Positions 141 to 50,029 of a DNA stretch of 50,029 nucleotides are shown piece by piece. The position numbers and the translations under genes are program-made. The first letter of the stretch is position 1. Each line of letters starts with the position of its first letter. Under the pieces are notes generated by a model. The model made no database searches. It saw only the letters and a program-made list of their open reading frames with translations, and had not been told where the DNA came from. This DNA is from Spirochaetaceae bacterium (lineage in GTDB: Bacteria > Spirochaetota > Spirochaetia > Treponematales > Treponemataceae), in assembly GCA_017936665.1 (NCBI GenBank), contig JAGBFB010000026.1:1-50029 (forward strand), given 5' to 3'.

Positions 141-239
141 GATTTTCGGCGAGAGCCAGTTTTTTCTGGTAACAATTACTATTTTGCAAAATTTTGTAGA
201 GTATATTGAAAATCTTTCCATTTTATGCTATCGTCAATT

Positions 240-752: not shown

Positions 753-768
753 TATAAGTAGGTATAAG

Positions 769-2217: not shown

Positions 2218-2239
2218 AATCATTCAGGGAGAAAAAATA

Positions 2240-3292: not shown

Positions 3293-3317
3293 TTACTTAT
3301 TTTTGGAAAACCTTAAA

Positions 3318-3953
3318 ATGAAAAAATTACAAGTTGCAGTTTTAGTTTCAGGTGGAGGAACAAACCTTCAAGCTTTAATTGATGAAGAATCTCGTTTGGA
3401 TAAAGATTGTCCTTATCATATAGCATTGGTTGTTTCTAGTACAAAAAATGCCTACGCTTTAGAAAGAGCTGAAAAAGCAAATATCCATACAGAAATTGCA
3501 AGTCCTTTTTCAGTTATGGGAAAGGAAGTTGCTCAAAATGCTTCAATCGAAGAAAAAAGACTTGCGGTTTCAAATAAAGTTTTAGAATTGTGCAAAAATC
3601 ATAAAATAGATGCAATTGTGTTAGCTGGTTTTTTAACTGTTCTTTCAGGAAAAATTGTTGATGATTTTTCAGGAAAGATAATAAACTTACATCCTGCTCT
3701 TTTACCAAAATTCGGTGGAGTAGGAATGTGGGGACACAATGTTCACGAAGCAGTTTTGGCTGCTGGCGAAACAGAATCAGGTTGTACAGTTCATCTTGTG
3801 GATGCCGGTTGTGATACAGGAAAAATTCTTTTGCAAAGAAAAGTTCCTGTGTTACCTGGTGATACTCCAGAATCCCTTTACGCTCGTATTGCTCCTGTTG
3901 AACACGAAGCAATGGTGGAAGGCGTAAAGGTTCTGGCTAAAATGATTAACTAA
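3318..3953 (+). CDS. purN: phosphoribosylglycinamide formyltransferase PurN
   Basis: PurN transfers a formyl group from 10-formyl-THF to GAR, the third purine step. The 211-residue protein starts MKKLQVAVLVSGGGTNLQAL (Rossmann GGGTNL). It has GFLTVLSGKIVDDFSGKIINLHPALLPKFGG, whose N-x-H is the catalytic pair, then GMWGHNVHEAVL and TESGCTVHLVDAGCDTG carrying the catalytic Asp. An ATG at 3285 is possible but adds 11 residues not found in the family; 3318 has GGAAAA before it. The gene ends the pur cluster and converges on the chemoreceptor gene with only two bases between stops, with no clear terminator in that gap. Confidence 0.95.
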   Translation: MKKLQVAVLVSGGGTNLQALIDEESRLDKDCPYHIALVVSSTKNAYALERAEKANIHTEIASPFSVMGKEVAQNASIEEKRLAVSNKVLELCKNHKIDAIVLAGFLTVLSGKIVDDFSGKIINLHPALLPKFGGVGMWGHNVHEAVLAAGETESGCTVHLVDAGCDTGKILLQRKVPVLPGDTPESLYARIAPVEHEAMVEGVKVLAKMIN

Positions 3954-3955
3954 TT

Positions 3956-6061
3956 TTATACATTAAATTGATCAATTTGTTGGTTAATTTCTTTAATTGA
4001 TTCATTTACATCCACAGAAATCATTTTTAACATTCCTTCTGTTTCTTTAATTGAAATAATACACTCTCCAAGTTGTGACATACAATTTTTTATTTCAATA
4101 TTGGCATTATGTAGATTGTCTACGCTGCGTAAAATTTGTTGATTTCCGTTTGTTATTTCAGAACCAAATTCTTTTACTTGAGAAGAACTACTATCTACAG
4201 AAATTAGAGCATTATTGATGATTTGTGTATCTCTTTCTTCTTCGTTAAGTGTTGATTTGATATTTGTAACAATTTCATCTGTTTCTTTGATTTTATCTGC
4301 AACTGAAACAAATGCATTACTAGATTCTTGTGATGCATTTACGATAGATTCTATTGTTTTTTTGATATTTGCAAGATGACTTCCGATTGTTTTTGTTTGT
4401 TCTGCTGATGTTACAGAAAGTTTTCTGATTTCGTCAGCAACAACGCTAAATCCTTTTCCGGCTTCTCCTGCGTGTGCAGCTTCGATTGCTGCGTTCATTG
4501 CTAATAATCCAGTTTGTGCTGTAATATTTTCGATAGTTTGGTTTGCTTCTTGCAAGAGTGCAGATTGATTTACAATTTTACCTATTTGAGCATCTACTTC
4601 CTTTTGTTTTGCTGAGCCATTTTCTGCTTTTATAATTAAGTCTGAAAAAGAACTAGCCAAAACTTCAATGTCTCTAGAAACAGAATTGATACTTTCTATC
4701 ATTCTTTTTACAAAGTTTGTTGCATTTTTAATATCTTCAGATTGTCTTTCTAAGGATTCTTGGAAAGAATTCATTATGTTAGAAATATTATTTACTGCTT
4801 CAGAAGTGGTTTCTACATTGTTGTGTTGAGTTGATAAGTTTGTTTCAATGTTGTTACTACTTGCAATAAGTTTTTTTACTGATTCTGCGGTACTTTCTGT
4901 TTGATGAGTTAAATCATTTCCAACTGTTTGAAGTTTTACACGGGATTTTTTTATATTGATAATCAAAGAACGAAGGATTTTTGTAAATTGATTAAAACTA
5001 TCAATAGCTTCTCCAATTTCATCATGTATTTTAACTTCAATTTCACCTGTTAAATCTGCATTACCACTTGCAATTTCAGAAACTGATTTTTTTAGTGAAG
5101 ATTCCAAATTATTCAATGGTTTTAAGGTTTTAGAAATAATCATTATGCTTATTACAATGATAAGCAAGATAGCAAAACTTCCTAAAATAATTACATTCAT
5201 AATTAAATTATCAAGAGATGAGAAAAATGCATCATAAGGAACAGTACAAACAGCAACCCAATCGTAACCTTCTACAGATGAAGATACAGCAACCATTTTT
5301 TCGTTTGTAAAAACATCTCTATAAATTTGCAAACTTGAATCATTTGTATGAGAAAGGATTGTTTGTGTGTATTTTGCAAATTTTTTCTCGTCTTTAGAAA
5401 TTTCTTCTGATACGGATGTTAAAATTTCATTAGAAACTTTATTTATGATGATTGGATGATATCCTGGAATAATTTCTACGCTATTAGCAATGTCATTGAT
5501 AACATTTCCTCGTAAAACTGTAACCATACATCCTAACGGATTATTTTTATAATCTTTTACAACAGTTGATAAAAACATCAAAACTTGATTATTTACTGTT
5601 GAAAATCGTGGATCTTCAACATAATCTTTGCCAGTTGCACAAGGTTCTACAACATACGGTTTGTTTTTAAGTTGCATAACAGTTCCGTTTGGCAAAGCTA
5701 AGAATCCGTCTTTGTCATAAAAAGCGATGTTTTCATATTTTTCTGGAAATTGTGAATAGAATGGTAAAAAGAATTGACATTTTTCTAGAATATCTTTTTT
5801 AGCATCAAATTCTTCTTTTGTGTAATCAGATTTTGTGATTGCTGGCAATTTTGCAAAAGAATGAATCAATGCAAATTCTTCGTCAACTTTTGCTTTTACT
5901 TGTTTAGCTGAACTTTTGGCAATTTCAAGCAAAGTTTTTTCTACTTGTTGTGTGTACTCTGTAGAAGCGTATCTTGTAACATAGATTGCGATAGAAGCCA
6001 TTGCAACAATTGCTACTGCAGATATGATAAGAGTTAATCTAGTTTTTAGTGATTTTTTCAT
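3956..6061 (-). CDS. methyl-accepting chemotaxis protein with periplasmic Cache-type sensor
   Basis: This is a transmembrane chemoreceptor that should signal through CheA/CheW to the flagellar motors. It has 701 residues: an N-terminal membrane helix after MKKSLKTRL (about residues 7-28), a periplasmic region of about 270 residues resembling a double Cache sensor, a second helix near residues 290-312, a HAMP linker, and a long coiled coil. The highly conserved signalling tip is near residues 508-545 ([31 protein letters not shown]). The ligand cannot be read from sequence. The start at 6061 has AGGAG nine bases before it; a further 41-residue upstream extension is open but lacks a site. No C-terminal CheR-tethering pentapeptide is seen. 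Confidence 0.93.
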
Positions 6062-6084
6062 AAAATCTCCTATGTGTACATTCG

Positions 6085-6114
6085 ATTCTACACCCCCTGT
6101 AAAATATTTGTCAA
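6085..6114 (-). promoter_or_regulatory. sigma-70-type promoter of the chemoreceptor gene
   Basis: On the minus strand TTGACA (6114-6109) and TAGAAT (6090-6085) are separated by 18 bases. They lie about 25 bases upstream of the start at 6061. The spacer contains a run of five G, notable in this A/T-rich DNA. Confidence 0.6.
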
Positions 6115-6257
6115 CTAAAAAACTATGATATTTGAATATATTGCGATAATGATTTTCGTATCGCCTGTTTTGTTTTGACATCAATTTACATTTTGCAAAG
6201 CTCTTTCTGGATTTATTGTGTTTTGTAAAATTTTTTTGTTCGGGTAATATTTTCTTT

Positions 6258-6286
6258 TTGCGTTTTTTGTGTTTTGAATGTATAAT
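6258..6286 (+). promoter_or_regulatory. sigma-70-type promoter of the Ig-like lipoprotein gene
   Basis: TTGCGT (6258-6263) and a perfect TATAAT (6281-6286) are 17 bases apart. The expected start of transcription is near 6293, about 27 bases before the ATG at 6320. The 6062-6319 interval is otherwise A/T-rich spacer between two divergent genes. Confidence 0.7.
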
Positions 6287-6319
6287 TTTTATTATTGAAT
6301 TTTTTTTGTAGAGGTGTGT

Positions 6320-6691
6320 ATGAAAAAACTAATTTTTGCTTTAACAATAATTTCGCTCTTTTTTCTAAGTTGTTCTGATGAAACTGTAAAACCAGGTGGT
6401 GATTATCAATTTGAAGGTTCTGTTTTACAATCTATCGAAGTTAAGACACTTCCTACAAAAACCGTATATTCTGTTGGTGAAGAATTTGAGCCAGATGGAC
6501 TTGTTTTAACTGCAAATTATATTGATTATTTTGCCAATGGTGAAACTAGAACTTCAACTCAAGAAATTAAGTATTCTGTTTACAAAGATTCCATTACTTT
6601 TTCACTAACAGATTTTTCTTCTGCAGGTGAAAAAGTAATTACAGTAACTTATGAAGGTAAATCTACATCTTTCAATGTAACTGTTGAGTAA
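6320..6691 (+). CDS. small lipoprotein with a bacterial Ig-like domain
   Basis: A 123-residue exported protein with a signal peptide ending in a lipobox (LFFLS|C, Cys at about residue 18), so it should be lipid-anchored. The rest is one domain starting [21 protein letters not shown], then DGLVLTANY, and ending [21 protein letters not shown]. This is the layout of the Big_3-type bacterial Ig-like domain common in surface proteins. It probably works in surface contact or as a structural module, but no partner is visible. The ATG at 6320 follows an AGAGGTG ribosome site; a GTG at 6314 lies inside that site and was rejected. Confidence 0.8.
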
Positions 6692-6795
6692 AAAAATTAG
6701 TATTTTTTACCAAAACACTTTCTAAAAACATTTCTAACTTTCTCATATTTATAATTTTTTAATATCAGATTAAAGAAAAAAAATTATATTCCTAC

Positions 6796-6822
6796 TTGAC
6801 GGGGGGGGTATTCTGTTAAACT
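6796..6822 (+). promoter_or_regulatory. candidate promoter with a run of eight G in the spacer
   Basis: TTGAC at 6796-6800 is followed by eight G (6801-6808) and then TATTCTGTTAAACT. The most likely -10 is TAAACT (6817-6822), giving a 15-base spacer, two short of ideal. Length changes in the G run would alter this spacing. The gene starts at 6881. Confidence 0.45.
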
Positions 6823-6826
6823 ACTT

Positions 6827-6866
6827 TTTGAAGTGAACTAACATAAAAAAATATTTTCACTTCAAA
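6827..6866 (+). promoter_or_regulatory. perfect inverted repeat directly before a ribosome binding site
   Basis: TTTGAAGTGAA (6827-6837) and TTCACTTCAAA (6856-6866) are exact reverse complements with an 18-base A/T loop. The right arm runs straight into GGAG (6867-6870) ten bases before the ATG at 6881. It could be an RNA hairpin controlling translation or mRNA stability, or a DNA operator just downstream of the promoter. There is no T-run after it, so a terminator is unlikely. Confidence 0.6.
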
Positions 6867-6880
6867 GGAGTTTATTTATT

Positions 6881-7273
6881 ATGAAAAAAATTCTTTTTTC
6901 AGTTTTAATCGTTGTATCGGTTATTTTTTTTAGTAGTTGTGGATTGAAATGGCAACTTTATGGTTTTAATTCTTCAAGTTGGGAAATGATAGCTTATGAA
7001 GATGATTCTTTAACTGTATCAGTTTATCTAACTTTTTGGGATGAAGAAGTTACAATGTACGTTAATTATGATTACGGTGGAGATTTAACACAATATTCAG
7101 GAGGAGGTCCTTATTCTGTTGATGGTGATCAATTAACTTTAAATTTGCGATGTGTTTGTGGTTCTTTTGATAATGTTATCGAAATTAATGGAACCTACAC
7201 AGCAGAAATTAAAGATGATAAATTAACTATCAAAAACGATAAGGAATCATTTACTTTAGAGAGAAGAAAATAA
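6881..7273 (+). CDS. small lipoprotein of unknown function
   Basis: A 130-residue protein with a classic lipoprotein signal (MKKILFSVLIVVSVIFFSS|C). The mature part is rich in Tyr, Asp and Gly and alternates polar and hydrophobic residues. It ends in a segment reading TYTAEIKDDKLTIKNDKESF, which resembles the beta-strand repeats of lipocalin-like or META-like small lipoproteins. I do not recognise a specific family. AAAGGAG lies ten bases before the ATG. Two regulatory-looking elements precede it: a promoter with a G8 run and a perfect hairpin. The stop lies four bases from the stop of the convergent OmpA-like gene. Confidence 0.75.
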   Translation: MKKILFSVLIVVSVIFFSSCGLKWQLYGFNSSSWEMIAYEDDSLTVSVYLTFWDEEVTMYVNYDYGGDLTQYSGGGPYSVDGDQLTLNLRCVCGSFDNVIEINGTYTAEIKDDKLTIKNDKESFTLERRK

Positions 7274-7277
7274 CCCC

Positions 7278-8630
7278 TTACGGAACTCTCTGAATATAAG
7301 TTGCCTTCGGTATGATGATTATTTCTACACGACGGTTTTGGGCTCTTCCTTCATTTGTGCTGTTATCGCCAATAGGGAGAGTTCCACCGTATCCTTTGTA
7401 TGAAAAAATGTTTCTATTCATTCCTCGTTCTACAAGTTGATTGATTATCGTTCCTGCTCTTTCAACTGAAAGATTCATTTCGCCAATTGGTTTTCCTACA
7501 CTGGCAGTGTGTCCTTCAACCATAATTGTAAATTCGTTATTCTTTGTGATTTTATGTAGCTCTTCGTAAATTGCATCAAGTCTTTCTTTTTCTTCTGGTA
7601 AAATTTCGCTTGAGTCAGCCACAAATTTTATATCTTGAATTGAAATTTGAATTCCTTTGTAAGTGTCAGTAATTTCAACATCTGGAATTTTGCGTTCATA
7701 GAAAAAGTTTTTTGTGTCCCTATAAACTACATAATAAGAATCGTTTTTTTCTGGAGCACCAACAGAATAAACAAGTTGTTCTTTATCCAAAAGGATGATA
7801 ACTCTTCCTTGCTTTAACAATTCACGATTTTCATCAAGTGAAAGAATTTTTAGTGCGTCTTTTTTTGAAATTACAGGGTCAGTTCTGTTAATTCCAAAGA
7901 TTTTTTTTGCAGTAATTCGTAAAGGGTCGTTTCCAATTCTATCTCTATAAAGATTTTCATCACTACTCCAATGATAATTTACAATTCCAAGTTCTTTTGC
8001 AACTTTGCTATCTTCAATGTTTTTTTCGTAAATTAATTCCATTTCTTCATTCCATACTTTAGGAAAAAGACAAGGATTTCCTGTTGAAGTTACAAATTCT
8101 CCTTGAACTGGCAAAACTCCACGGGCATCAATAATGATTCCTGTGTATTTACGAGTTGCAGTTTTTTCAATTGGGGAGTTTGGTTTGTAAGGAAAACTAT
8201 GTTTTACAAGTTTTGATGAAATATCATTTAATTTTATCGTGTGATTTATTATGATGCTATCTTTTTCGTTTGAATAAACTGAAGCACTTTGTTTTCCGTC
8301 TTGAATAATATTTGTGATTTCTTCTAAAGATAATGTATCTTGTAATACTGTATCTCCAAGTTTAAGTGAAGAATCAACTGGTAACGATAAAAGTGGATCT
8401 TTTATAAGTAGTGGAATTTTAGATTCTAAAATAGTTTTTGCAGCACCTCTTCCTGAAGGTAAAACTATATTACTTTCAGAAATATCTAATTCTGCAGTTG
8501 AAAAAAAAGCAGGTTTTGTCCAATCTACGATACTTTGCGATGTTGCTTGTTGTGAAAACAAATTTATGTTTAAAGCAAATAGTATAAAAACTATTGAAAT
8601 TAAAAATTTTCTCAAAAAATACCTTTTCAT
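7278..8630 (-). CDS. OmpA-family peptidoglycan-binding protein
   Basis: A 450-residue exported protein with a signal peptide ending near NINLFSQ. The first 320 residues are not recognisable beyond a large periplasmic or outer-membrane domain. The last 110 form an OmpA C-terminal domain: DIKFVADSSEILPEEKERLD, MVEGHTASVG, LSVERAGTIINQLVERG, and SYKGYGG with NEGRAQNRRVEI. The Asp/Arg pair of such domains binds diaminopimelate in peptidoglycan. It overlaps the upstream lytic transglycosylase gene by four bases (ATGA), so the two are translationally coupled in one envelope operon. Confidence 0.85.
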   Translation of the reverse strand: MKRYFLRKFLISIVFILFALNINLFSQQATSQSIVDWTKPAFFSTAELDISESNIVLPSGRGAAKTILESKIPLLIKDPLLSLPVDSSLKLGDTVLQDTLSLEEITNIIQDGKQSASVYSNEKDSIIINHTIKLNDISSKLVKHSFPYKPNSPIEKTATRKYTGIIIDARGVLPVQGEFVTSTGNPCLFPKVWNEEMELIYEKNIEDSKVAKELGIVNYHWSSDENLYRDRIGNDPLRITAKKIFGINRTDPVISKKDALKILSLDENRELLKQGRVIILLDKEQLVYSVGAPEKNDSYYVVYRDTKNFFYERKIPDVEITDTYKGIQISIQDIKFVADSSEILPEEKERLDAIYEELHKITKNNEFTIMVEGHTASVGKPIGEMNLSVERAGTIINQLVERGMNRNIFSYKGYGGTLPIGDNSTNEGRAQNRRVEIIIIPKATYIQRVP

Positions 8631-10018
8631 AACTCTATTATCGGCACTTTTATCTCAGAACCTATACGTAAAATGTCATCAATTTTCATATTATTTTCTT
8701 CTGCAAGAACTTCAACTTGAACATTGTATTTTAAAGATAAATTCCATAGTGTATCTTTTTCTGTAACTTTATGTTTTCCATTGAAAACTACTTTTTCAGG
8801 TTGTTTAGCTCCTGTAAACTTTGCTACATCTTTTATTGCTGGAATCATCAATTTTTGTCCAATTTTGATGATTGTTCCACTAAGTTTGTTTACTTTTTGA
8901 ATTTCGCTAACTGGAATTTCGTAATGTTTAGAAAGTGCGTATAAAGAATCCCCAGATTTTACAGTATAAACATGATATTTTATCAACGGAAGATTTGAAC
9001 TTGCCAATAAAGTTTGTACTTCTTCTTTTTTTTCTTTTGGAATACGCAAATTATATGTTGTATCAGGAGGAGTTACATTGTAATAAAGTGAAGGATTGTA
9101 AAAAGTTAATAGTTCCTTTTCTATATCAGATTTTTCTGCTAAAATTCCTAAATCGATAGAGCGTTTTACAGGAATTTCTTCAAAGTTTGTACAATTATCA
9201 GTTTCTTCATTAGGTTCAGGAAAGTCTAATCCGTAAAAATCTTTGTTATCTAAAATGTGAGAAATTGCTAAAAATTTTGGAACATAGTTTTTTGTTTCTG
9301 TTTTTAAAAATCCTTTTTCTGCTAAATACCAAAAATCAGAACTTCCTGCTTTTTTGATGGTTCTTGTCATTGCACCAAGACCACAATTGTACGCTGCTAA
9401 AGCTAGTTCCCAAGAACCTAGATAATCGTAGTTTTCTTTTAATTTTTTTATTGCAGCTTTTGTTGTTAGCCAAGGGTCTTTTCTTTCGTCCATCCAAGAA
9501 TTTATACGAATGTTAAATGGAGCAATACTGTTTTTCATAAATTGCCACATTCCGTAGGCTCCAGATTTTGAAAGGGCAGAAATTTTATAACTTGATTCAA
9601 TTACAGGAAGATATTGTAAATTTTTAGGCATATTATTTTTTTCCAGTGTTTTTTGAACAAAGGCTCTATATTTTAAAGATTCAGTCATTACAGTATTTAA
9701 CCAATCTTTTGCAAAATTACTTGTATATTGTTCAATTTGCTTTTGTACTAAAGGATGAAAATTTTTTGCTTCTTCTTCTGCATTATTTTTTTTCTCAATT
9801 TGAATTTCTTGTACAATTTTTTCAACTTCTTGTGAAAGTCCTACTTCTTGAATAAGTTCAACTTCTTGTTGTAAAATTTCTTCTTGTTTTTCAATGTTTT
9901 GAATTTCAGATTGAATTTCACCTTCTTGTGAAGTTATTTTAAAACATGCACACATAGATAATATAGCGTACAAGAAAATCTTAATTAAAAGATGTTTATT
10001 TATTGATTTATTTATCAT
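8627..10018 (-). CDS. membrane-associated lytic transglycosylase with two LysM domains (MltD-like)
   Basis: It cleaves peptidoglycan glycan strands with 1,6-anhydro ends. In 463 residues it has an N-terminal export signal, a Glu/Gln-rich stretch (residues 32-80), then an SLT catalytic domain with the general acid at about Glu141 in LPVIESSYKISALSKSGAYG, followed by MWQFM and ALAAYNCGLGAM. Two LysM modules close the protein: about 349-397 (YTVKSGDSLYALSKHYEIP) and 414-460 (KVTEKDTLWNLSLKYNVQV). This layout is that of MltD. Its start overlaps the stop of the upstream lipoprotein by one base (TAATG). It probably remodels the wall, and its proximity to flagellar genes need not mean a flagellar role. 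Confidence 0.92.
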   Translation of the reverse strand: MINKSINKHLLIKIFLYAILSMCACFKITSQEGEIQSEIQNIEKQEEILQQEVELIQEVGLSQEVEKIVQEIQIEKKNNAEEEAKNFHPLVQKQIEQYTSNFAKDWLNTVMTESLKYRAFVQKTLEKNNMPKNLQYLPVIESSYKISALSKSGAYGMWQFMKNSIAPFNIRINSWMDERKDPWLTTKAAIKKLKENYDYLGSWELALAAYNCGLGAMTRTIKKAGSSDFWYLAEKGFLKTETKNYVPKFLAISHILDNKDFYGLDFPEPNEETDNCTNFEEIPVKRSIDLGILAEKSDIEKELLTFYNPSLYYNVTPPDTTYNLRIPKEKKEEVQTLLASSNLPLIKYHVYTVKSGDSLYALSKHYEIPVSEIQKVNKLSGTIIKIGQKLMIPAIKDVAKFTGAKQPEKVVFNGKHKVTEKDTLWNLSLKYNVQVEVLAEENNMKIDDILRIGSEIKVPIIEL

Positions 10019-11052
10019 TAAAGTTTCTCACCAAAATAAATTCCAGCCCATTCCCATCTTCCATGAATTTCTGGGTCTAGAGGAAAGTTTACTTTTCTAA
10101 AATATAAGTACCAAACATTGATATATTGACTCCATCCTGTAGTTCTTAAGTAGGCTTCATTTGGATTTGAAGATTCATCAAGTTTTGCAGAATATCTAAT
10201 TCTGTTTCCTCTCATATAATCTTTCATAGAAAAGTTTTTTTGACTGTTTGTATCAGTTTCTTCTTGTTTCCAAGACATAGCAAAAAAGTTTACTTTAGAA
10301 CGATATTTATCTAAAAGTGTGGAACTGTATCTTGAAATTGCATTTTTTACGGCTTTTTCCAAGGATTCAAGACTTTCAAAAGTCCAATCTTTAGGTGAAT
10401 TATTAAAATCGATTAATTTTCTTGCTTTGTTATAAGCATCTGGAATTCCTGGAATTTGAATAGTTGTTGCATCAGGACGTTCCAAAAATAATGAATATGT
10501 GTATAGGGCTTGTTCCCAATCTCCAATTTTTTCATATTCGATGGCAAGCCTCATGTATAATTCTGTGATATTTACTTCATCTGGAAACCTTGTAATCAAC
10601 TGATTAAAATAGTATATTCTGTTATCAGAGGATGTACTTATTTGAATTAAGTTTTGCAAACACAAAATATGAACAGATTTTCCTTTTACAAGGAGGTCGT
10701 CATAGTTTTGGATAATTCTGTCAAAATAATATTCAGCTACAGAATCTGCATTTTCTTGCATATATGTGTAGGCTGTTAAAAGTAACCAATATGAGTTATA
10801 TGGATTATCAGGATTTTTTTCTACAAAATCTGTTAGAAAAAGAATCAAACTTTGATTATCTCCCTGATACCTAAAAGAATCTGCAATTTGATTTATGATT
10901 GAGAATGATGTTTGTGAATTATCCTTTTCTTTTTCTAGTAATTCAAATAATTCTTTTTGATTTTTGCTTATTGTTGTTTTTTGAGTACAAGAAAATGCAA
11001 ATAGAATATATACACAAAAAGCAAAAAATGTTATTTTATTAAGATGTAGCAT
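10018..11052 (-). CDS. TPR-like lipoprotein of unknown function
   Basis: A 344-residue protein with a lipobox (ILFAFS|C). The middle is helical with tetratricopeptide-like pairs (ELYMRLAIEYEKIGDWEQALYTYSLFL). The C-terminal 90 residues are different, rich in Trp and Tyr (TTGWSQYINVWYLYFRKVNF ... HGRWEWAGIYFGEKL), and may form a small beta domain. It leads the minus-strand operon lipoprotein-transglycosylase-OmpA, so a periplasmic scaffold or wall-assembly role is a reasonable inference but unproven. Its promoter -10 is only seven bases from the ATG, so the mRNA may have almost no leader. Confidence 0.75.
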   Translation of the reverse strand: MLHLNKITFFAFCVYILFAFSCTQKTTISKNQKELFELLEKEKDNSQTSFSIINQIADSFRYQGDNQSLILFLTDFVEKNPDNPYNSYWLLLTAYTYMQENADSVAEYYFDRIIQNYDDLLVKGKSVHILCLQNLIQISTSSDNRIYYFNQLITRFPDEVNITELYMRLAIEYEKIGDWEQALYTYSLFLERPDATTIQIPGIPDAYNKARKLIDFNNSPKDWTFESLESLEKAVKNAISRYSSTLLDKYRSKVNFFAMSWKQEETDTNSQKNFSMKDYMRGNRIRYSAKLDESSNPNEAYLRTTGWSQYINVWYLYFRKVNFPLDPEIHGRWEWAGIYFGEKL

Positions 11053-11058
11053 AATTGC

Positions 11059-11088
11059 ATTATAATAAAACTAATTGATAAATTACAA
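11059..11088 (-). promoter_or_regulatory. promoter of the envelope operon, giving a near-leaderless mRNA
   Basis: On the minus strand TTGTAA (11088-11083) and a perfect TATAAT (11064-11059) are 18 bases apart. Transcription should start near 11052, the A of the ATG. The 42-base gap also has to hold the signals for the divergent gene at 11095. Confidence 0.55.
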
Positions 11089-11094
11089 GGATAA

Positions 11095-11682
11095 ATGATG
11101 AAATTTTTGAGTAAAAATATTAAAATTAATATAGTTCTTGTTATAGGACTTGCTTTAATTTTTACAGGTATTCTATTATTAACAGGATATTTTGCAATTA
11201 ATCCTCAAAGTATTTTTTTGTTTAGAGGTGTAATTTTATTTATACTTGGTGCTGTTTTATTGTTCATAGAATTAATGACGCCAACAAAAACTTGGTTAAT
11301 GTTTATATCTGTTGTTTTAATGTTAATTTCGGTTATTTTTGTTATGAGTGATGTTGGATTTTTACCTTTTGGAATAAAAAACTTATGGCCTTCATTTATT
11401 ATTATTTTTGGTTTGTCACTTATTTTATTTTCTTTTTACAAAAATAAACAAATGAAAGCAGTTTATTTGATTCCAGCATTAACTATAATTTTTTTTGGTG
11501 TGTTTTTTATGCTTTTTTCTATGAAAGTAATTAAAGCAAATTTTGTTTCGCTTGCTTCAAAATTGTGGCCACTTTTATTAGTGCTTTGTGGTGGAATTTT
11601 AATTACAATTTATTTTATGCAACATCATAATTTACTAAAAATTGTACAAGATAAAACAACAATAAAAGAGGATGATGAGTGA
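11095..11682 (+). CDS. multi-pass membrane protein with LiaF-like transmembrane repeats
   Basis: A 195-residue protein with about six membrane helices arranged in pairs. It resembles the LiaF/DUF5668 membrane domain, with repeats such as FRGVILFILGAVLLFIEL and LWPLLLVLCGGILITIYF. The cytoplasmic tail is short and charged. In other bacteria such domains sit in envelope-stress systems, but here no sensor kinase is adjacent, so the function is unknown. Two ATGs in tandem (11095 and 11098) can serve; AAGG spacing slightly favours the second. It overlaps the next gene by four bases (GTGA), so the pair is probably co-translated. Confidence 0.75.
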   Translation: MMKFLSKNIKINIVLVIGLALIFTGILLLTGYFAINPQSIFLFRGVILFILGAVLLFIELMTPTKTWLMFISVVLMLISVIFVMSDVGFLPFGIKNLWPSFIIIFGLSLILFSFYKNKQMKAVYLIPALTIIFFGVFFMLFSMKVIKANFVSLASKLWPLLLVLCGGILITIYFMQHHNLLKIVQDKTTIKEDDE

Positions 11683-13430
11683 TAAATTTAAGAAGGACAA
11701 TTTTTTGTGTTACTTCATTATTATTAATTTTCTCATTTTCCTGTAAATCTGTTCCTGATAATGTGGAAGAAGGTGTTTCTGTAGAAACAACATCGCCTAT
11801 TGAGCAACAAGCAGTTCAGCTTTCTGTTCCAACTTCTCCTCCTAAAATTGAAAAATTGGGGAATTTTCCAGATATAAAACCGTCAACATTAAAATTGATT
11901 GAAAATGGAACTTTGCTGTCGTTAAAGGAAGCTGCATCTCTTCTTCGGAGTCCTGACCAAGTTTATAATAATCAGCAAATTATTTTGTTAAATGTTATTT
12001 CTGGAATAATGAGTATTGTTTATCCAGGCGAAAAACTTTCTTGGCCAATTCCTCCTGTTGATTTTGAAAATAATTATACTGCTGCCTTAAATTCAGCTAA
12101 AAAAGGTGTTTACGATTTTAGTGTAGGAACTTCTGATTTTTTAGAATTGACTTTACCTTCTCTTGTTTTGATTACAGCTCCCTCTTTAAAAAATTATTAT
12201 CTTGAATCCGAAGCCTCTTTGAAAGATGCATTGAAACTTTATCCTGAATCCTTTTTGGCAAATTATTTACTGGCTTTGCTTTTTTACAGACAAAATCGAG
12301 ATGTAGAATCAATGCAATATTTTGAAAAAGCTTATGCAATAGATGATTCTTGTATAACTATGAATCAAATTTATGCAAATTGTCTTATACGAAATAACAA
12401 AAACGCTTTGGCAGATAAAATTTCAAAGAAGATTTTGCAAAATAATCCTGATAACATTGAAATCTTAAAAGTTTCAGCAATTTCAAGTTTTAATTCTGGA
12501 AATTTACAAAGTGCAGAGCAATATGTAATCAGAGTTTTACAACAAGAACCTGATAATATGGAATTTATTTTGTTAAGAGCAAAAATCTTGATGAAAAAAG
12601 GTGAATATCTAAATGTTTCTTCACTTTTGGATGTTTACAGTCGAAACAATGGAACTGATAAAGATTATTTGTTGTTGAGAGCAGAATTACAAAGAGACTG
12701 GAATAAAAATATTTCTGCCGCCTCTAGTACAATTCAAACAGCTTTAAATCTTTACCCAGATGATATTGATGTTTTATTAATGGCAGCTTCTATAATGGCA
12801 AGTTCAGGGCAAAAAATAGGACAAAAATCATTAAGAGATGTTTTAGATACTGTGTTAAAAAAAGATCCTAATAATGCTTTTGCTCAAGAACTTTTAATTT
12901 CTGAATATTTAAACTTAGAGGATTGGAATTCTGCCTATAATTTAAGTTTTTCTTTAATAAACAAAAAAAATTATTCTACTCAAATTTTGTTACAACATAT
13001 AAAAAGTTGTATTGCTTTAAAATTATCTTCTGAAGCAAGAAATACTTTTATTTTATTAAAAAACTACTCTGTAGAAAAAAACATATTAGATTTAGTAGAA
13101 GTGCAAATTTTAATTGCAGAAGGTCGCAAAGCCGAAGCTTTAAACCTTATTCAAAAGGCTTTATCTGAATATTCTGGTAAGATAAAAAGTAATTTTTATT
13201 ATGAAAAAAGTAGAATTGCTTCAAATGATGATCAAAAATTGTCTGATTTACGCTCTTCTTTAACTGCAAATCCTCGCAATCCTGAAGCATTATTTGCTCT
13301 TTACGAATATTATTTTAAAAAAGCAGACTATCGTAAGGCTCAATATTATTTGCGACAAGTTGTTGCACTAAATCCTGAAAGTAAAAAATTAGCCGAATTG
13401 AATGCAAAATTAGATACCTTGATTAACTAA
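11679..13430 (+). CDS. TPR-repeat lipoprotein
   Basis: A 583-residue lipoprotein (lipobox LIFSFS|C at about residue 22) followed by at least eight helical repeat pairs of TPR type. Examples are ALLFYRQNRDVESMQYFEKA, SSFNSGNLQSAEQYVIRVLQ and YYFKKADYRKAQYYLRQVVA, each ending near an N-P or D-P turn. Such proteins are periplasmic or outer-membrane scaffolds. It starts with GTG; an in-frame TGA directly precedes it, and the GTG overlaps the preceding stop, with AGAGGA as ribosome site, so the start is firm. It is likely to work with its co-translated membrane partner. Confidence 0.85.
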   Translation: MINLRRTIFCVTSLLLIFSFSCKSVPDNVEEGVSVETTSPIEQQAVQLSVPTSPPKIEKLGNFPDIKPSTLKLIENGTLLSLKEAASLLRSPDQVYNNQQIILLNVISGIMSIVYPGEKLSWPIPPVDFENNYTAALNSAKKGVYDFSVGTSDFLELTLPSLVLITAPSLKNYYLESEASLKDALKLYPESFLANYLLALLFYRQNRDVESMQYFEKAYAIDDSCITMNQIYANCLIRNNKNALADKISKKILQNNPDNIEILKVSAISSFNSGNLQSAEQYVIRVLQQEPDNMEFILLRAKILMKKGEYLNVSSLLDVYSRNNGTDKDYLLLRAELQRDWNKNISAASSTIQTALNLYPDDIDVLLMAASIMASSGQKIGQKSLRDVLDTVLKKDPNNAFAQELLISEYLNLEDWNSAYNLSFSLINKKNYSTQILLQHIKSCIALKLSSEARNTFILLKNYSVEKNILDLVEVQILIAEGRKAEALNLIQKALSEYSGKIKSNFYYEKSRIASNDDQKLSDLRSSLTANPRNPEALFALYEYYFKKADYRKAQYYLRQVVALNPESKKLAELNAKLDTLIN

Positions 13431-45752: not shown

Positions 45753-46025
45753 GTGTACGCTTATGTAAGTGAAATTACAAAATGTATTGCTTCAATAAAA
45801 GACGGAAAAAATTATTATTCTTCAAATTTTTATAAAATCTTAAATTCTAACACTTCTGATAGAATGGAATATCCTGAAGTTTTTGAAGGTTTTTCAATGA
45901 AAGAAAAAATGGTATTCAATTTTATGTTACAAAGTATAAAACAAGAAAGAATTGCTTATATTTTAGGCATAAATAAAAATACGGTTGCAACATATTGTTC
46001 TAGAGTTAAAAAAAAAGTGGCGTAA
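45753..46025 (+). CDS. LuxR/NarL-type HTH protein without a receiver domain
   Basis: A 90-residue protein. Residues 46-90, FSMKEKMVFNFMLQSIKQER followed by IAYILGINKNTVATYCSRVKKKVA, match the four-helix LuxR/GerE DNA-binding domain. The preceding ITKCIASIKDGKNYYSSNFY matches the linker that follows the receiver in NarL-type response regulators. The phospho-receiver itself is absent: an in-frame TAA lies directly before the GTG start, so the ORF cannot extend upstream. It may be a free-standing regulator or a remnant. It is the first gene before the repeated peptide cassettes and could control them. Confidence 0.7.
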   Translation: MYAYVSEITKCIASIKDGKNYYSSNFYKILNSNTSDRMEYPEVFEGFSMKEKMVFNFMLQSIKQERIAYILGINKNTVATYCSRVKKKVA

Positions 46026-46040
46026 ATTCTGTAAATTAGG

Positions 46041-46090
46041 TATACTAAACAGGAGACAAAGTTATGAAAATAACAGTAAAAGAATTTGTA
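46041..46090 (+). repeat. cassette repeat, copy 1 (ribosome site and start of a short leader ORF)
   Basis: TATACTAAACAGGAGACAAA, then GTTATGAAAATAACAG, is shared almost base for base with 47861, 48627 and 49622. From there copy 1 follows copy 4 (GTAAAAGAATTTGTA), while copies 2 and 3 diverge. It lies in the gap after the HTH gene. Confidence 0.85.
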
Positions 46091-46163
46091 TTCTCCAAAT
46101 GGAGAAATTATTACACAAGCCTATGATTTGAATAATGATGGGGTTATAGATTATGCGAGATAA
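46064..46163 (+). pseudogene. frameshifted short-peptide gene (relative of 49646-49885)
   Basis: The ATG at 46064 (GGAG eight bases upstream) starts MKITVKEFV, identical to the leader start at 49646, but the frame ends at 46126 after 20 residues. From 46098 another frame reads NGEIITQAYDLNNDGVIDYA, Arg, stop at 46163. That tail is the counterpart of the NGNGDGKVDYVKR ending at 49885. Leader and tail are in different frames and the body is missing, so an internal deletion or frameshift is likely. The tail frame overlaps the next gene's ATG by 11 bases. Confidence 0.65.
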
Positions 46164-47208
46164 AATTATATGTATTTTGATGTTGTTTATATCATTTAAT
46201 ATTTTTGCTTATGAGCGAGTTGATTTAGTATCAGAAAATTCTGTGGATAAAATTTATGTTGATAAAATTATTCAAAATTATTTTTGGGATGAATACGATT
46301 CAACAAGGCTTGTAAAAAATTATTCTGAAGTTGAAGGTAATTTTATTAAAGAATATTATTTTTACAATGTTGATATTTTTCAATTTAAAAAAGAAACTAA
46401 AAATGAATTACGATGTCTTGGATTTCGCTGTAGAGATGTAGCAAATTTTACTAACGATGTTTTATTGATAAATACAGACAAAGTTAATGGAAATATCTGC
46501 TATATAAAACTTGATTCTGTTGAAAATAATTCAGATAACATTTTCTATTTGTGGAATGGCTCATTTAATTCAAACGCACAAAATAAATCAAAATTAGGAA
46601 TTACATTTAATAAAAAAAGAAGTGAATTTCAATTAAACACGAATATTTCAAAACTTAAAATTTATAGTTTAGATAAAAATATTAAAGTAAATAAAATTGA
46701 TGGCTATGAATCTTTTGTATGTCTTAGAGAAGTTCAATTTGAAAATTTTGAAAATGTAAATCTTAAAAAATTAGAAAATCCTGTTTGGTTTAAAATTACT
46801 TTTAACAACTGTAAAAATGTAAACATAAAAAAAATTAACCAAAATATTAGTAATCTTGAAAAATGGTTTTTATCAAATGGATATACTCCAGTTTTAGATG
46901 AATCAATTGGAAGCAAGAAAAATAAATATGAACTTTCAAAAGGGAAGAAGTCAAAAATTTTTGAATATAAAGAAACTTGTTTAATTGAAAATACTAATAT
47001 TGATTTTATTTATAGATATGATTCAATTTCACAAGAAATGATAAATTTTCATGTACTTGCTCGTTATGAAGAAAATGGAATAATAAAGTTTTATGAAAAA
47101 TTAAATTTAAATAAAGATAATTCTGATAATAAAATAATTCTTAATGGAAAATTTACTGATGAAAATAATAAAACTATAGAAAATCCAATTTTGTATTTGT
47201 GGAGATAA
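46153..47208 (+). CDS. secreted protein of unknown function, cassette 1
   Basis: A 351-residue protein with a signal peptide (MRDKIICILMLFISFNIFA|Y). The mature part is Asn/Lys-rich with repeated aromatic positions, for example KIIQNYFWDEYDSTRLVKNY and FYLWNGSFNSNAQNKSKLGI, and looks mostly beta-stranded. It contains two cysteines in NELRCLGFRCRD. I recognise no family. Its ATG lies within the last codons of the decayed short-peptide gene, exactly as the lipoprotein at 49872 lies within the tail of the intact one. The next gene starts after seven bases. Confidence 0.7.
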   Translation: MRDKIICILMLFISFNIFAYERVDLVSENSVDKIYVDKIIQNYFWDEYDSTRLVKNYSEVEGNFIKEYYFYNVDIFQFKKETKNELRCLGFRCRDVANFTNDVLLINTDKVNGNICYIKLDSVENNSDNIFYLWNGSFNSNAQNKSKLGITFNKKRSEFQLNTNISKLKIYSLDKNIKVNKIDGYESFVCLREVQFENFENVNLKKLENPVWFKITFNNCKNVNIKKINQNISNLEKWFLSNGYTPVLDESIGSKKNKYELSKGKKSKIFEYKETCLIENTNIDFIYRYDSISQEMINFHVLARYEENGIIKFYEKLNLNKDNSDNKIILNGKFTDENNKTIENPILYLWR

Positions 47209-47215
47209 CTAATTT

Positions 47216-47845
47216 ATGAAAAAGAAAATTTTACTTTCAATACTTTTAATATCATGTTGTTGCTATGTTTTTACACAATCTTGCGAAAGTATAGGTTTAT
47301 ATGAAAAACTCCAACCGACTAAAAAGAAAGGAGTGCAATTTCCATATAAAGACCAATTTGAAGTAACAAATCTTGAAGGTAAATCAATAAGATTATTTCA
47401 AAATGTAGATGAAATAATTGAAATTCTAGGCGAACCTGATACGATTGATTTAGTTTTTAAGAATCCTGGAAAAAATAAAGAAGATTATGATATTTTAGAA
47501 CTTGTTTATAATGATGGTTTAAGATGCTTATATTATCGAGGTCTAAAAAATGTTTTTCGTATAATACTTACGACTGATAAATATTTTTTGTCTGACGATA
47601 AAATTTGTATAAATCATTTTACGCAACAAGAAATTTTAGAACGATTTGGTTCAGGTGTTAGTTATTATAAAGTTTACGAAGATAACAGTAGAAAAAAAAT
47701 AAAATTTTTTTATGATACACGATTACCTGACATTATTGGAGAAAAGGCTTTTAATCTTGAATATCTATTTTCTGCAAGGTTTGTTATAGATTACGAAACA
47801 GATATTTGTGAATCTATAGTTTTGTTTGCAGATTCTGGAGTATAA
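47216..47845 (+). CDS. exported protein of unknown function with SmpA/BamE-like motifs
   Basis: A 209-residue protein with an export signal MKKKILLSILLISCCCYVFT; a Cys cluster at residues 14-16 could serve as a lipobox, but the fit is poor. Two segments, FQNVDEIIEILGEPDTIDLV and HFTQQEILERFGSGVSYY, have the pattern of BamE/SmpA-like small domains (hydrophobic, E-I-L-x-x-F/L-G). Function unknown. Its stop begins the 48-base repeat that leads into the second cassette. Confidence 0.65.
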   Translation: MKKKILLSILLISCCCYVFTQSCESIGLYEKLQPTKKKGVQFPYKDQFEVTNLEGKSIRLFQNVDEIIEILGEPDTIDLVFKNPGKNKEDYDILELVYNDGLRCLYYRGLKNVFRIILTTDKYFLSDDKICINHFTQQEILERFGSGVSYYKVYEDNSRKKIKFFYDTRLPDIIGEKAFNLEYLFSARFVIDYETDICESIVLFADSGV

Positions 47846-47935
47846 ATTTTTACAAAAAAATATACTAAACAGGAGACAAAGTTATGAAAATAACAGATAC
47901 TGCTGTTGGTTTGTAAATTAATAATAAATTAATCA
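47843..47935 (+). repeat. cassette repeat, copy 2
   Basis: Starts at the stop codon of the preceding gene. The first 48 bases (TAAATTTTTACAAAAAAATA, then TACTAAACAGGAGACAAAGT) recur at 49604-49652 with one inserted A. The part from 47870 through ATGAAAATAACAGATACTGC, then TGTTGGTTTGTAAATTAATA, recurs at 48628 with a single substitution. Confidence 0.9.
47884..47916 (+). CDS. 10-residue mini-ORF MKITDTAVGL (copy 2)
   Basis: ATG at 47884 with GGAG eight bases upstream, same spacing as the other copies. The peptide MKITDTAVGL is identical at the base level to 48642-48674. It shares the first four codons and ribosome site with the leader-peptide genes, then differs. It may be a translated leader for the following gene, or the stub left by deletion of a longer peptide gene. 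Translation is plausible but not proven. Confidence 0.4.
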   Translation: MKITDTAVGL

Positions 47936-47950
47936 GGAGAGTAAACTTTT

Positions 47951-48601
47951 ATGAAAAAGAAAATTAATATCTTTTTAGTTGTTTTACTAATAACAAGCGT
48001 ATTTGCTATGGGGCAGCAAAAAACAAATCTAAATTCAAATGATTATAAAACTGAATTAATTCCAGATATCAATAGTGATGATTCAGCTTATGACGATTCT
48101 CGTACATTAGAATTTTGTTTAAAAAATGATAAAGGTATAAATCTTTGCCTTTATCATAATATCAGAAAACAAAATGGAATTGATTTTGAGGACAATGAGA
48201 TTTATGCAGAGTGGACGCTAAAAATGCAAAATAAAATAATAAGATGGGTAAAACAAGAACTCGATGGATTATCTGTTATTTGGGATTACATGGATGGAAC
48301 AATTTTGAAAATGGAAACAACATCTTCCCATTGGTCAACAAAACGTGGTGTAAAAGTTGGAGATCCAATTTCAAAAATTATGGAATTTTATGCTCCAGAT
48401 GCAAAAGTAACTTATTATAACTTTGAAACAAAAGAGAGTACTATAATTTCAGATAAAGCAAATCCATTATTATTTTTGAGAGAAGATAATGAAGGTATAC
48501 TTGTGTATGTTGCTAATATGTTAGCAGAAGAGACAATGTATATTAGGTTTACTCAAGAAAATGGTTTAATTACTAAAATACAAATATATGCTGCTACTTA
48601 G
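47951..48601 (+). CDS. secreted protein of unknown function, cassette 2
   Basis: A 216-residue protein with a signal peptide (MKKKINIFLVVLLITSVFAM, cleavage probably near GQQ). The mature part has a beta-rich core and a segment RGVKVGDPISKIMEFYAPDA followed by KVTYYNF, like the G-x-x-x-G-D-x-x-x-x-I motif in BamE-type folds. The gene at 47216 has similar segments. Two Cys occur in TLEFCLKNDKGINLCLYHN. No known family. GGAG is 11 bases before the ATG, rather far. Confidence 0.65.
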   Translation: MKKKINIFLVVLLITSVFAMGQQKTNLNSNDYKTELIPDINSDDSAYDDSRTLEFCLKNDKGINLCLYHNIRKQNGIDFEDNEIYAEWTLKMQNKIIRWVKQELDGLSVIWDYMDGTILKMETTSSHWSTKRGVKVGDPISKIMEFYAPDAKVTYYNFETKESTIISDKANPLLFLREDNEGILVYVANMLAEETMYIRFTQENGLITKIQIYAAT

Positions 48602-48620
48602 TTTAGAACAAAAAATCCCA

Positions 48621-48685
48621 TAATAATCAGGAGGCAAAGTTATGAAAATAACAGATACTGCTGTTGGTTTGTAAATTAATAATAA
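48621..48685 (+). repeat. cassette repeat, copy 3
   Basis: AATCAGGAGGCAAAGTTATG, then AAAATAACAGATACTGCTGT and TGGTTTGTAAATTAATAATA, matches copy 2 with one substitution (GGAGGC for GGAGAC). The TATACTAAAC part is replaced by CATAATAATC. Confidence 0.9.
48642..48674 (+). CDS. 10-residue mini-ORF MKITDTAVGL (copy 3)
   Basis: ATG at 48642 with AGGAGG eight bases upstream. All 11 codons are identical to 47884-47916. It is followed after 29 bases by the next exported-protein gene. Interpretation as for copy 2: leader ORF or deletion stub. Confidence 0.4.
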   Translation: MKITDTAVGL

Positions 48686-48703
48686 AGGAGAAATAAAACT
48701 TTT

Positions 48704-49606
48704 ATGAAAAAGAGCCTTTTAATTTTTTTATGTTTAGTATTTTTCTCTGTTTGTCTTTTTTCAGAAAATATTACAGATATATTTAAAGATGTAATTCCAG
48801 AAAGTATAGTAAATTATGACCAATTAGTTCAAAATCCGATAGTAAATGGTAAATATATTGAAAATTTAGATTTTGTAAAAGGAAAGATATTAAAGTGCTA
48901 TGATGAAGAATATTATCTGCATAGTGATGGTAATGTTTCTTATGGTGATAGCGAAGAAAAAGATATTTATATTTTGTATTATTTTTATGATAATAATGGT
49001 CGTATAAATAAATTTATTTTTACTAAAGGATATCCAGATAGGGTTTTTGAAATAGATGTAGATTTGTATGAATACAAAGATGGAATTTTTCTTATAAGAA
49101 CAACTTCAACAAAATTATATAATAATAAAATAACAGAAAGTGTTGAAAAGTATAAAATTACAAAAGACAAAAATAAAGTTTTTCTATTTAAAGAAAATGA
49201 AAAAGGTGAAAATTTAAATGAAACAATTTATTCCAAAGTTGATAATGAATTAAGAATTATATCTTGTACAATAGACGAAAATAATCAAAAAAAACTAGAT
49301 GCACGAACAGAAACTATCTATAAAGAAAATATAAAGACAATTATACGATACAAAAACAATGAAGTCTATTCAATTACAGAATATAAAAATAATATTGCAG
49401 TAAAAAAAATAGACAAAGATGGAAATATAACAATACTTACGAGTAATGCAAAAGAAATAGAATATCATCCAGCTGGATTTATTGAATTGGAATATTATCA
49501 TCCTCAAGAACATGGTAGTCCTGGATTATATCAAAAATCAACTATAGAAATTCTCGATAAGCCAGATGAATTGTTACTAAAATATTTTCCAGAGCTAAAG
49601 GAATAA
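48704..49606 (+). CDS. secreted protein of unknown function, cassette 3
   Basis: A 300-residue protein with a signal peptide (MKKSLLIFLCLVFFSVCLFS|E). The mature part is made of short repeated beta-hairpin segments with Tyr and Lys, for example EEYYLHSDGNVSYGDSEEKD, YYFYDNNGRINKFIFTKGYP and NEVYSITEYKNNIAVKKIDK. They recall the tandem YD/MORN-like antitoxin or wall-contact repeats, but I cannot assign a family. AAAGGAG lies 13 bases before the ATG. Its stop starts the same 48-base repeat as the gene at 47216. Confidence 0.7.
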   Translation: MKKSLLIFLCLVFFSVCLFSENITDIFKDVIPESIVNYDQLVQNPIVNGKYIENLDFVKGKILKCYDEEYYLHSDGNVSYGDSEEKDIYILYYFYDNNGRINKFIFTKGYPDRVFEIDVDLYEYKDGIFLIRTTSTKLYNNKITESVEKYKITKDKNKVFLFKENEKGENLNETIYSKVDNELRIISCTIDENNQKKLDARTETIYKENIKTIIRYKNNEVYSITEYKNNIAVKKIDKDGNITILTSNAKEIEYHPAGFIELEYYHPQEHGSPGLYQKSTIEILDKPDELLLKYFPELKE

Positions 49607-49671
49607 ATTTTTACAAAAAAATATACTAAACAAGGAGACAAAGTTATGAAAATCACTGTAAAAGAATTTGT
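49604..49671 (+). repeat. cassette repeat, copy 4
   Basis: Starts at the stop codon of the preceding gene; matches 47843-47890 with one inserted A (AACAAGGAGACAAAG). From the ATG on it follows copy 1, with ATCACT in place of ATAACA. Confidence 0.9.
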
Positions 49672-49885
49672 AAAGTTAGATATACAAGGTTTAATGAAAG
49701 TAAATGGTGGAACAAGTAGTTGCTGAAATTATAGTAAAACCCAACCAGCAACACCTCCATCAGGAGGAAATGAAACAAATAATGCACCATCAAATAATGG
49801 AAGTGGTATTACTGTTGGAGGATGTAGTTCTATAAATGGTGGAAACGGTAATGGAGATGGTAAGGTAGATTATGTTAAAAGATAA
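49646..49885 (+). CDS. short double-glycine-leader peptide with in-frame TGA and EF-hand-like tail
   Basis: ATG at 49646 with AGGAG eight bases upstream. Residues 1-22 (MKITVKEFVKLDIQGLMKVN, Gly, Gly) fit a double-glycine leader: Gly at -1 and -2, hydrophobics at -4 (Val), -7 (Leu) and -12 (Leu). Such leaders are cut by C39-peptidase ABC exporters. Thr-Ser-Ser-Cys follows, then TGA at 49724-49726. The frame then stays open for 52 more codons with a Gly/Asn/Ser/Pro-rich body (TQPATPPSGGNETNNAPSNN), GGCSSINGG and the tail NGNGDGKVDYVKR, stop at 49883-49885. The tail resembles a calcium-binding EF-hand/dockerin loop lacking the twelfth-position acid. Read-through (possibly selenocysteine) and a nonsense mutation are both possible. 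No exporter gene is in the window. Confidence 0.5.
49754..49767 (+). other. short hairpin 27 bases after the in-frame TGA
   Basis: CCTCC-ATCA-GGAGG is a perfect five-bp stem with a four-base loop, 27 bases after the TGA at 49724. Bacterial SECIS hairpins have apical loops roughly 16-37 bases after the UGA, so the distance fits. The loop lacks the G residues usual for SelB binding, so this is weak support only. Confidence 0.3.
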
Positions 49886-50029
49886 ATTATTTTTATTAGT
49901 TTTAGTTTTTTTTATATTGAATTTGGAATCTTGCGTTACTCCAAAAGATAAAACTTCCTCTAGTAAACCAATTGTTACAAAATTTGTTCTGGATGAAGAA
50001 CCTAGCTATCAATCCAAATATGAAAATAA
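49872..50029 (+). CDS. lipoprotein of unknown function, 5' part (cut by window end)
   Basis: ATG at 49872, 14 bases inside the tail of the short-peptide gene, with AAGG about six bases upstream. The first 52 codons give a lipoprotein signal MLKDKLFLLVLVFFILNLES|C and a mature start VTPKDKTSSSKPIVTKFVLD. The rest lies beyond the window. The overlap mirrors the one at 46153, and the starts of the two proteins (MRDK / MLKDK) come from the homologous peptide-tail DNA. The lipobox is good; the function is unknown. Confidence 0.75.
   Translation, partial: MLKDKLFLLVLVFFILNLESCVTPKDKTSSSKPIVTKFVLDEEPSYQSKYEN

What the first reader, a model, noticed from the sequence alone, without database searches (positions are those of the whole stretch)
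46041..50029. Repeated short-peptide / exported-protein cassettes
Seen: four copies of a short unit (ribosome site plus ATG-AAA-AT(A/C)-AC(A/T), Met-Lys-Ile-Thr) precede four segments of exported-protein genes in 4 kb. Copy 4 starts a double-glycine-leader peptide, copy 1 a broken relative, and copies 2 and 3 a 10-codon mini-ORF. Inference: this is a locus of short secreted peptides, each paired with an exported partner (receptor, immunity or anchoring protein), partly decayed and spread by duplication. I know no described system of this form.
Basis: partly seen in the sequence, partly recalled or inferred. Interest (0 to 1): 0.85.

Follow-up and report, generated by a model that had tools for sequence, protein, structure and literature searches.

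The report
Orphan immunity genes with toxin stubs
In a Treponema genome, a stretch that looked like genes for short secreted peptides is better read as a row of leftover 'immunity' genes, most still preceded by a stump of the secreted toxin gene they once travelled with, showing how a bacterium may collect protection against its rivals' weapons.

Summary
Four copies of one RBS + ATG-AAA-ATM-AC unit lie within 3.6 kb; a fifth is on contig C22 and there are no others in 2.58 Mb. They precede five exported-protein genes.

The reading changes. Relatives of three of these proteins sit directly behind full-length double-glycine (GG) leader proteins in other Treponemataceae. These carry a C-terminal M23 peptidase (P2, P3) or a papain-like domain with an EF-hand (P4), often near C39-ABC exporters. 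P3 homologues also follow RHS-M23 proteins, so the partner tracks the toxin domain rather than the delivery part. I conclude that the window is an array of orphan immunity genes. Its short 'peptides' are stubs: copies 2 and 3 have ten codons, copy 1 has an internal deletion, copy 4 a stop at codon 27.

The array lies between ribF and rpsO, which are adjacent in 27 of 29 related loci. The assembly breaks inside it; the contig carrying rpsO-pnp begins with a C39-exporter fragment. An intact GG/C39 system lies elsewhere (C7).

Precedents: T. denticola lipoprotein/bacteriocin-signal clusters and V. cholerae T6SS immunity arrays. Immunity itself is inferred, not shown.

The parts
45753..46025 (+). 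Remnant of a LuxR-type regulator (C-terminal HTH only) at the left edge of the insert, right after ribF
   Evidence: Pfam GerE E 8.9e-6, above its cut-off; ribF ends at 45746
46042..46126 (+). Copy 1: anchor/RBS plus broken leader ORF MKITVKEFV... (20 codons)
46086..46163 (+). Out-of-frame effector tail ...YDLNNDGVIDYAR* overlapping the start of P1
   Evidence: same geometry as copy 4
46153..47208 (+). P1, exported protein, 351 aa; C-terminal relatives in G086 and G171, adjacent to P2-family genes
47216..47845 (+). P2, exported protein, 209 aa; family found behind GG-leader-M23 genes
47842..47916 (+). Copy 2: 30-nt conserved upstream, RBS and 10-codon stub MKITDTAVGL*
47951..48601 (+). P3, exported protein, 216 aa; family found behind GG-leader-M23, RHS-M23 and M23 remnants
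48620..48674 (+). Copy 3: RBS and the same 10-codon stub MKITDTAVGL*
48704..49606 (+). P4, exported protein, 300 aa; family found behind GG-leader papain-like/EF-hand proteins
49603..49726 (+). Copy 4: conserved upstream, RBS and 26-codon GG-leader ORF ended by TGA
49727..49885 (+). Still-open remainder of the copy 4 frame: linker and tail ...GNGNGDGKVDYVKR*, overlapping the start of P5
49872..50029 (+). P5, start of a lipoprotein gene (LESC box), cut by the contig end
   Evidence: contig C15 ends at 50029

Best explanation
The segment is an array of orphan immunity genes from double-glycine-leader toxin systems of Treponema. In the intact form, a cell makes an effector with a GG leader, a low-complexity linker and a C-terminal toxin domain (M23 peptidase or papain-like peptidase with an EF-hand). 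A C39-peptidase ABC exporter cuts the leader at GG and secretes the effector. The next gene makes an exported or lipoprotein partner that would protect the producer's own envelope. In this genome, incoming effector-immunity modules probably recombined at the conserved leader/RBS stretch. Each time the old effector was lost down to a stub and its immunity gene was kept. The result is stub-P1-P2-stub-P3-stub-P4-truncated leader-P5. Shown here: the anatomy, the homology of P2, P3 and P4 to partners of full effectors, the decay of all four leaders in the window, and the interrupted ribF-rpsO order. Inferred: toxicity, immunity, the recombination route, and that the array still protects the cell.
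For: P3 homologue directly behind a 338-aa GG-leader-M23 gene in G024, with a C39-ABC exporter in the cluster. P2 homologue directly behind a GG-leader-M23 gene in G019 and in G096. P3-family genes also behind GG-M23 (G190), RHS-M23 (G287) and M23 remnants (G083, G293). P4 homologues directly behind GG-leader papain-like effectors in G106, G132 (twice) and G138, with C39-ABC exporters nearby in all three genomes. A crude GG-leader pattern hits 3 of 114 background ORFs. Partners track the toxin domain across two delivery modules (GG and RHS). The same decay recurs in other genera: G200 has ten leader copies in 12 kb, including two identical GG-less stubs, each followed by a small exported or membrane gene; G006 has a leader start fused to a P2 homologue; G096 has a frameshifted leader and a C39-only exporter fragment. 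ribF and rpsO are adjacent in 27 of 29 relatives' loci, while here the insert separates them and a C39 fragment abuts rpsO on C26. Intact C39-ABC, HlyD and TolC-like genes with a GG-leader protein lie on C7.
Against: No immunity activity has been tested. Only about a third of the partner homologues sit next to a recognisable toxin gene; the others may be orphans or may do something else. P1 and P5 have no linked toxin of their own. A toxin-first search gave two further papain-like loci (L130, L131) whose downstream lipoproteins are not P4-type. The sequence between the window end and C26 is missing. The C22 copy is still open and may be a working short GG protein.
Confidence: 0.76

Rival explanations
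1. The short ORFs are working secreted peptides (bacteriocin or signal peptides), each paired with a cognate receptor or immunity protein.
For: Clear GG leader in copy 4 and in the open C22 copy; intact C39 exporter on C7; strong conserved RBS on every copy.
Against: Copies 2 and 3 end after 10 codons with no GG and no mature part. Copy 1 is out of frame. Copy 4 stops four residues after GG. No related peptide was found in 59 relatives beyond a chance match or in genome contigs. The partners' relatives pair with long effectors instead.
Confidence: 0.08
2. The mini-ORFs are kept as cis-acting translation leaders: their strong RBS loads ribosomes that re-initiate on the exported gene about 30 nt downstream, so the stub now drives expression of the immunity gene. 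This can be true together with the best explanation.
For: Copies 2 and 3 stay 96% identical over 67 nt while the genes behind them are unrelated; the tails of copies 1 and 4 overlap the next start codon; slight excess of local folding, z -2.3.
Against: The identity can equally reflect recent duplication or gene conversion. P3 and P4 have their own RBS. The stub DNA occurs in no other genome searched, so conservation cannot be judged.
Confidence: 0.2
3. The exported proteins are surface or anchoring proteins (for example adhesins) that merely share an export-related operon and are not immunity proteins.
For: No Pfam or NCBIfam assignment; some homologues lie away from any toxin gene.
Against: P2 and P3 relatives track M23 domains, P3 across GG and RHS carriers, and P4 relatives track the papain-like domain. 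Small exported or lipoprotein products suit protection of the periplasm.
Confidence: 0.1
4. Copy 4 is a functional recoded gene, its TGA read as selenocysteine or another residue.
For: The frame stays open for 52 codons after TGA, with a tail like the C22 copy; a hairpin spans the TGA.
Against: No SelA in this 99%-complete genome; the C22 copy has an ordinary sense codon at the corresponding place.
Confidence: 0.02

Closest known systems
[quoted passage not shown]
   Same: Same genus; GG-leader proteins alternating with exported lipoproteins in tandem; bacteriocin-type ABC exporter alongside; repeats attributed to duplication.
   Different: There three GG proteins (167-614 aa) are expressed and detected in culture supernatant, the lipoprotein lies upstream of its GG protein, and the copies are close duplicates. 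Here the effectors are stubs, the partners lie downstream and the partner families are unrelated. Homology between the two sets was not tested.
Vibrio cholerae T6SS orphan immunity gene arrays (PMC5361080)
   Same: Different immunity genes in tandem, left when incoming effector-immunity modules displaced old effectors, with a conserved upstream stretch proposed as the recombination anchor.
   Different: T6SS rather than C39/GG delivery. Here each partner except P2 is still preceded by a stub of the 5' leader.
Polyimmunity loci of polymorphic toxin systems (PMC3482391)
   Same: Several immunity genes in one orientation with small gaps and no intact toxin between them; the paper lists T. denticola among species with an excess of immunity proteins.
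   Different: That paper says extended loci (four or more genes) were seen only in proteobacteria, bacteroidetes, firmicutes and actinobacteria. P1-P5 match no Pfam family above its cut-off.
GG-leader class II bacteriocins/microcins with C39-ABC (PCAT) exporters
   Same: N-terminal leader ending in GG; C39 exporter, HlyD and TolC-like genes in the genome (C7).
   Different: The related effectors are 270-460 aa proteins with enzymatic C-terminal domains, not small pore-forming peptides.

Membership tests
Orphan immunity array / polyimmunity locus | Tandem partner genes, same strand, short gaps | tested here: met
   P1-P5 all on +; gaps of 7 to about 265 nt, the longer ones filled by stubs
Orphan immunity array / polyimmunity locus | Members homologous to partners of complete toxins elsewhere | tested here: met
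   P2, P3 and P4 met; P1 only indirectly (beside P2-family genes); P5 too short to tell
Orphan immunity array / polyimmunity locus | No intact toxin gene within the array | tested here: met
   All four leader copies are stubs or broken; the part beyond the contig end is unseen
Orphan immunity array / polyimmunity locus | Proteins neutralise a toxin | not testable with these tools
   Needs a co-expression assay
C39/GG-leader export system | Leader ending in a double glycine | tested here: met
   Copy 4 and the C22 copy end ...V-N-G-G; copies 1-3 do not. TIGR01847 is at or below its cut-off on the relatives tested
C39/GG-leader export system | C39-ABC exporter in the genome and at the locus | tested here: met
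   Intact on C7. At the locus only a 68-aa fragment, on C26, joined by gene order and not by sequence
Short-peptide bacteriocin with immunity protein | A mature peptide follows the leader | tested here: not met
   Copies 1-3 have none; copy 4 has four residues before TGA
T. denticola bacteriocin-type signal / clustered lipoprotein locus | Sequence homology of GG proteins and lipoproteins to TDE_0412-0424 | not tested
   No T. denticola record was fetched; the comparison is by architecture from PMC11879956 only
Selenoprotein (copy 4) | Selenocysteine machinery in the genome | tested here: not met
   No SelA match in own genome; control rings in E. coli

The most novel reading that the evidence does not exclude
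Treponema carry a family-wide class of polymorphic toxins (M23 or papain-like with EF-hand) delivered by GG-leader/C39 exporters. The short conserved leader/RBS DNA acts as the recombination anchor, so arrays of orphan immunity genes grow stepwise and each displaced effector leaves a leader stub that records an earlier weapon and may be reused to drive translation of the retained immunity gene.
Probability: 0.4. Interest if true: 0.7.

Novelty: new variant of a known kind. Interest (0 to 1): 0.52.

Why it matters
It links an unexplained Treponema gene cluster to competition between bacteria. It also offers an explanation for why the T. denticola 'bacteriocin-signal' proteins showed no killing of the strains tried in PMC11879956: they may be narrow-range effectors against close relatives that lack the matching partner. 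It gives three uncharacterised exported families a testable role as inhibitors of an M23 or papain-like toxin domain. The stubs preserve a readable record of displaced effectors outside the T6SS, where such arrays are best known.

Tried and rejected
Peptide search: 59 relatives gave only one weak match (G046), which on inspection is a shared QPATPPAG string inside an unrelated ORF; genome contigs gave none. Pfam, NCBIfam and PADLOC on the window's exported proteins: nothing usable. Structure prediction of P3 and P4 from single sequences: mean pLDDT about 40, not used; loci taken from whole genomes are not on the list of sequences allowed for that tool, so no alignment was sent. PDB profile searches: the P4-linked toxin profile finds almost only EF-hand proteins, and the P4 family finds nothing; the papain-like call therefore rests on conserved Cys and His in the alignment and is an inference. 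Promoter/terminator scan: no clear excess over shuffles. Selenocysteine reading of the TGA: rejected. Duplication of one exported gene: rejected, the four proteins are not alike. Search for the stub DNA in 274 family genomes: own genome only. The anchor-identity computation used starts one base off for copies 1-3, so I rely for those identities.
Full report
Setting. The window is the whole of contig C15 (50029 bp) of a 43-contig, 99.2% complete genome. Relatives found by toxin search are named Treponema MAGs, some from rumen. The window ends inside the finding, so the locus is cut by the assembly.

Observation. Four exact copies of the RBS/MKIT unit lie at 46051, 47871, 48629 and 49633; one more is on C22 and no others exist in the genome. 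Copies 2 and 3 share 67 nt at 96% identity, including the 10-codon ORF, although the genes behind them are unrelated. Copies 2 and 4 share 30 identical nt upstream. Copy 4 has a full GG leader but a TGA at codon 27. The C22 copy is open for at least 124 codons to the contig end. Copy 1 keeps MKITVKEFV and then an out-of-frame tail. The tails of copies 1 and 4 (YDLNNDGVIDYAR*, GNGNGDGKVDYVKR*) overlap the next gene's start codon in the same way, which suggests translational coupling of an effector to its partner before decay.

Where the locus sits. ribF ends at 45746. Of 29 rpsO loci taken from relatives, 27 have ribF immediately upstream of rpsO; this includes both other members of the genus (G001, G002). 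In this genome rpsO-pnp lie at the end of C26, which begins, on the matching strand, with a C39-peptidase fragment of 68 aa ending in a stop. By gene order, C26 is the right-hand continuation, and the insert between ribF and rpsO ends in a decayed exporter. This is inference from conserved order; no read joins the two contigs. The genome has an intact C39-ABC exporter on C7 with HlyD and TolC-like genes, a 277-aa GG-leader protein and an exported lipoprotein.

What the exported genes are. None has a Pfam or NCBIfam assignment. Searches in relatives changed the picture. P3 has a 36-38% homologue in G024 directly behind a 338-aa GG-leader protein with an M23 domain; the cluster also has a second GG protein, a radical-SAM protein and a C39-ABC exporter. 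P2 has a 34-36% homologue in G019 directly behind a GG-leader-M23 protein. Across 274 family genomes, P2-type genes occur in 11 genomes (own genome included) and P3-type in 15, the weakest of these at E near 1e-4. M23 genes lie directly upstream in GG form (G019, G024, G096, G190), in RHS form (G287; G164 at a weak partner score) and as remnants (G083, G293; G285 weak). P4-type genes lie directly behind GG-leader proteins with a conserved Cys/His domain and an EF-hand in G106, G138 and twice in G132, with C39-ABC exporters nearby. P1 has C-terminal relatives in G086 and G171, next to P2-type genes as in the window.

Control. A crude GG-leader pattern hits 3 of 114 background ORFs. About a third of the partner homologues have a recognisable toxin domain directly upstream; the rest do not, which fits the view that such genes are often orphaned but is not proof. 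A toxin-first search gave five loci: three already seen, plus L130 and L131, where a different exported or lipoprotein gene follows the toxin. So the toxin domain changes partners over distance, as toxin-immunity pairs do.

Decay elsewhere. G200 has ten leader copies in 12 kb, including two stubs with the same GG-less fusion, each followed by a small exported or membrane gene. L130 has one intact effector, decayed effector pieces and several lipoprotein genes in a row. G006 has a leader start fused to a P2 homologue. G096 has a frameshifted leader and a C39-only exporter fragment. The window is therefore one case of a recurring pattern.

Mechanism. Best supported: incoming modules of leader-effector-partner recombined at the shared leader/RBS stretch; old effectors were lost and partners retained. 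This is the route proposed for V. cholerae T6SS arrays (PMC5361080). Tandem immunity loci are known in polymorphic toxin systems (PMC3482391). The partners carry signal peptides or lipoboxes by eye, which suits protection of the periplasm against peptidases. Toxicity and protection have not been shown for any of them.

Comparison. The nearest published relative is the T. denticola cluster of lipoproteins and bacteriocin-type signal proteins with tepA1-B1; its GG proteins are secreted but killed none of the tested strains (PMC11879956). I compared architecture only. No paper found in my searches describes C39/GG-delivered M23 or papain-like effectors with immunity arrays in spirochaetes, but that library is partial.

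Verdict. Real feature, reinterpreted: an orphan immunity array with effector stubs, a new variant of a known kind.

Noticed in passing
window 49719-49752: The TGA of copy 4 lies in a perfect 7-bp inverted repeat (GTTGCTG...CAGCAAC) that the C22 copy lacks; RNA fold z -4.6. The cluster of changes looks like a template-switch mutation.
   Followed up: partly
L013 (G000:C7:28000-47999), 5248-11589 minus strand: Intact GG-leader protein (277 aa, papain-like by eye), lipoprotein, C39-ABC exporter, HlyD and TolC-like genes beside a glycosyltransferase; the same neighbour flanks the G006 cluster (L068), so the site is probably shared between genera.
   Followed up: partly
L005 (G000:C22) 1-413 minus strand: Fifth leader copy, open for at least 124 codons and cut by the contig end; a Pro/Gly/Ser/Thr-rich linker with no toxin domain visible.
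   Followed up: partly
L125 (G200:C23) about 550-12760, reverse complement: Ten GG-leader copies in 12 kb, several truncated, alternating with small exported or membrane genes: a larger version of the window's array.
   Followed up: partly
L066 (G024:C1) 5346-7023 minus strand: Radical-SAM gene, apparently split by a frameshift, between GG-leader effectors and the C39 exporter; could modify the effectors.
   Followed up: no
L126 (G287:C31) 1143-7262, reverse complement: A 2039-aa RHS/YD-repeat protein with a C-terminal M23 domain, directly followed by a P3-type partner.
   Followed up: partly
window 45753-46025: Fragment of a LuxR-type regulator at the left edge of the insert; whether it once controlled the cluster is unknown.
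   Followed up: no
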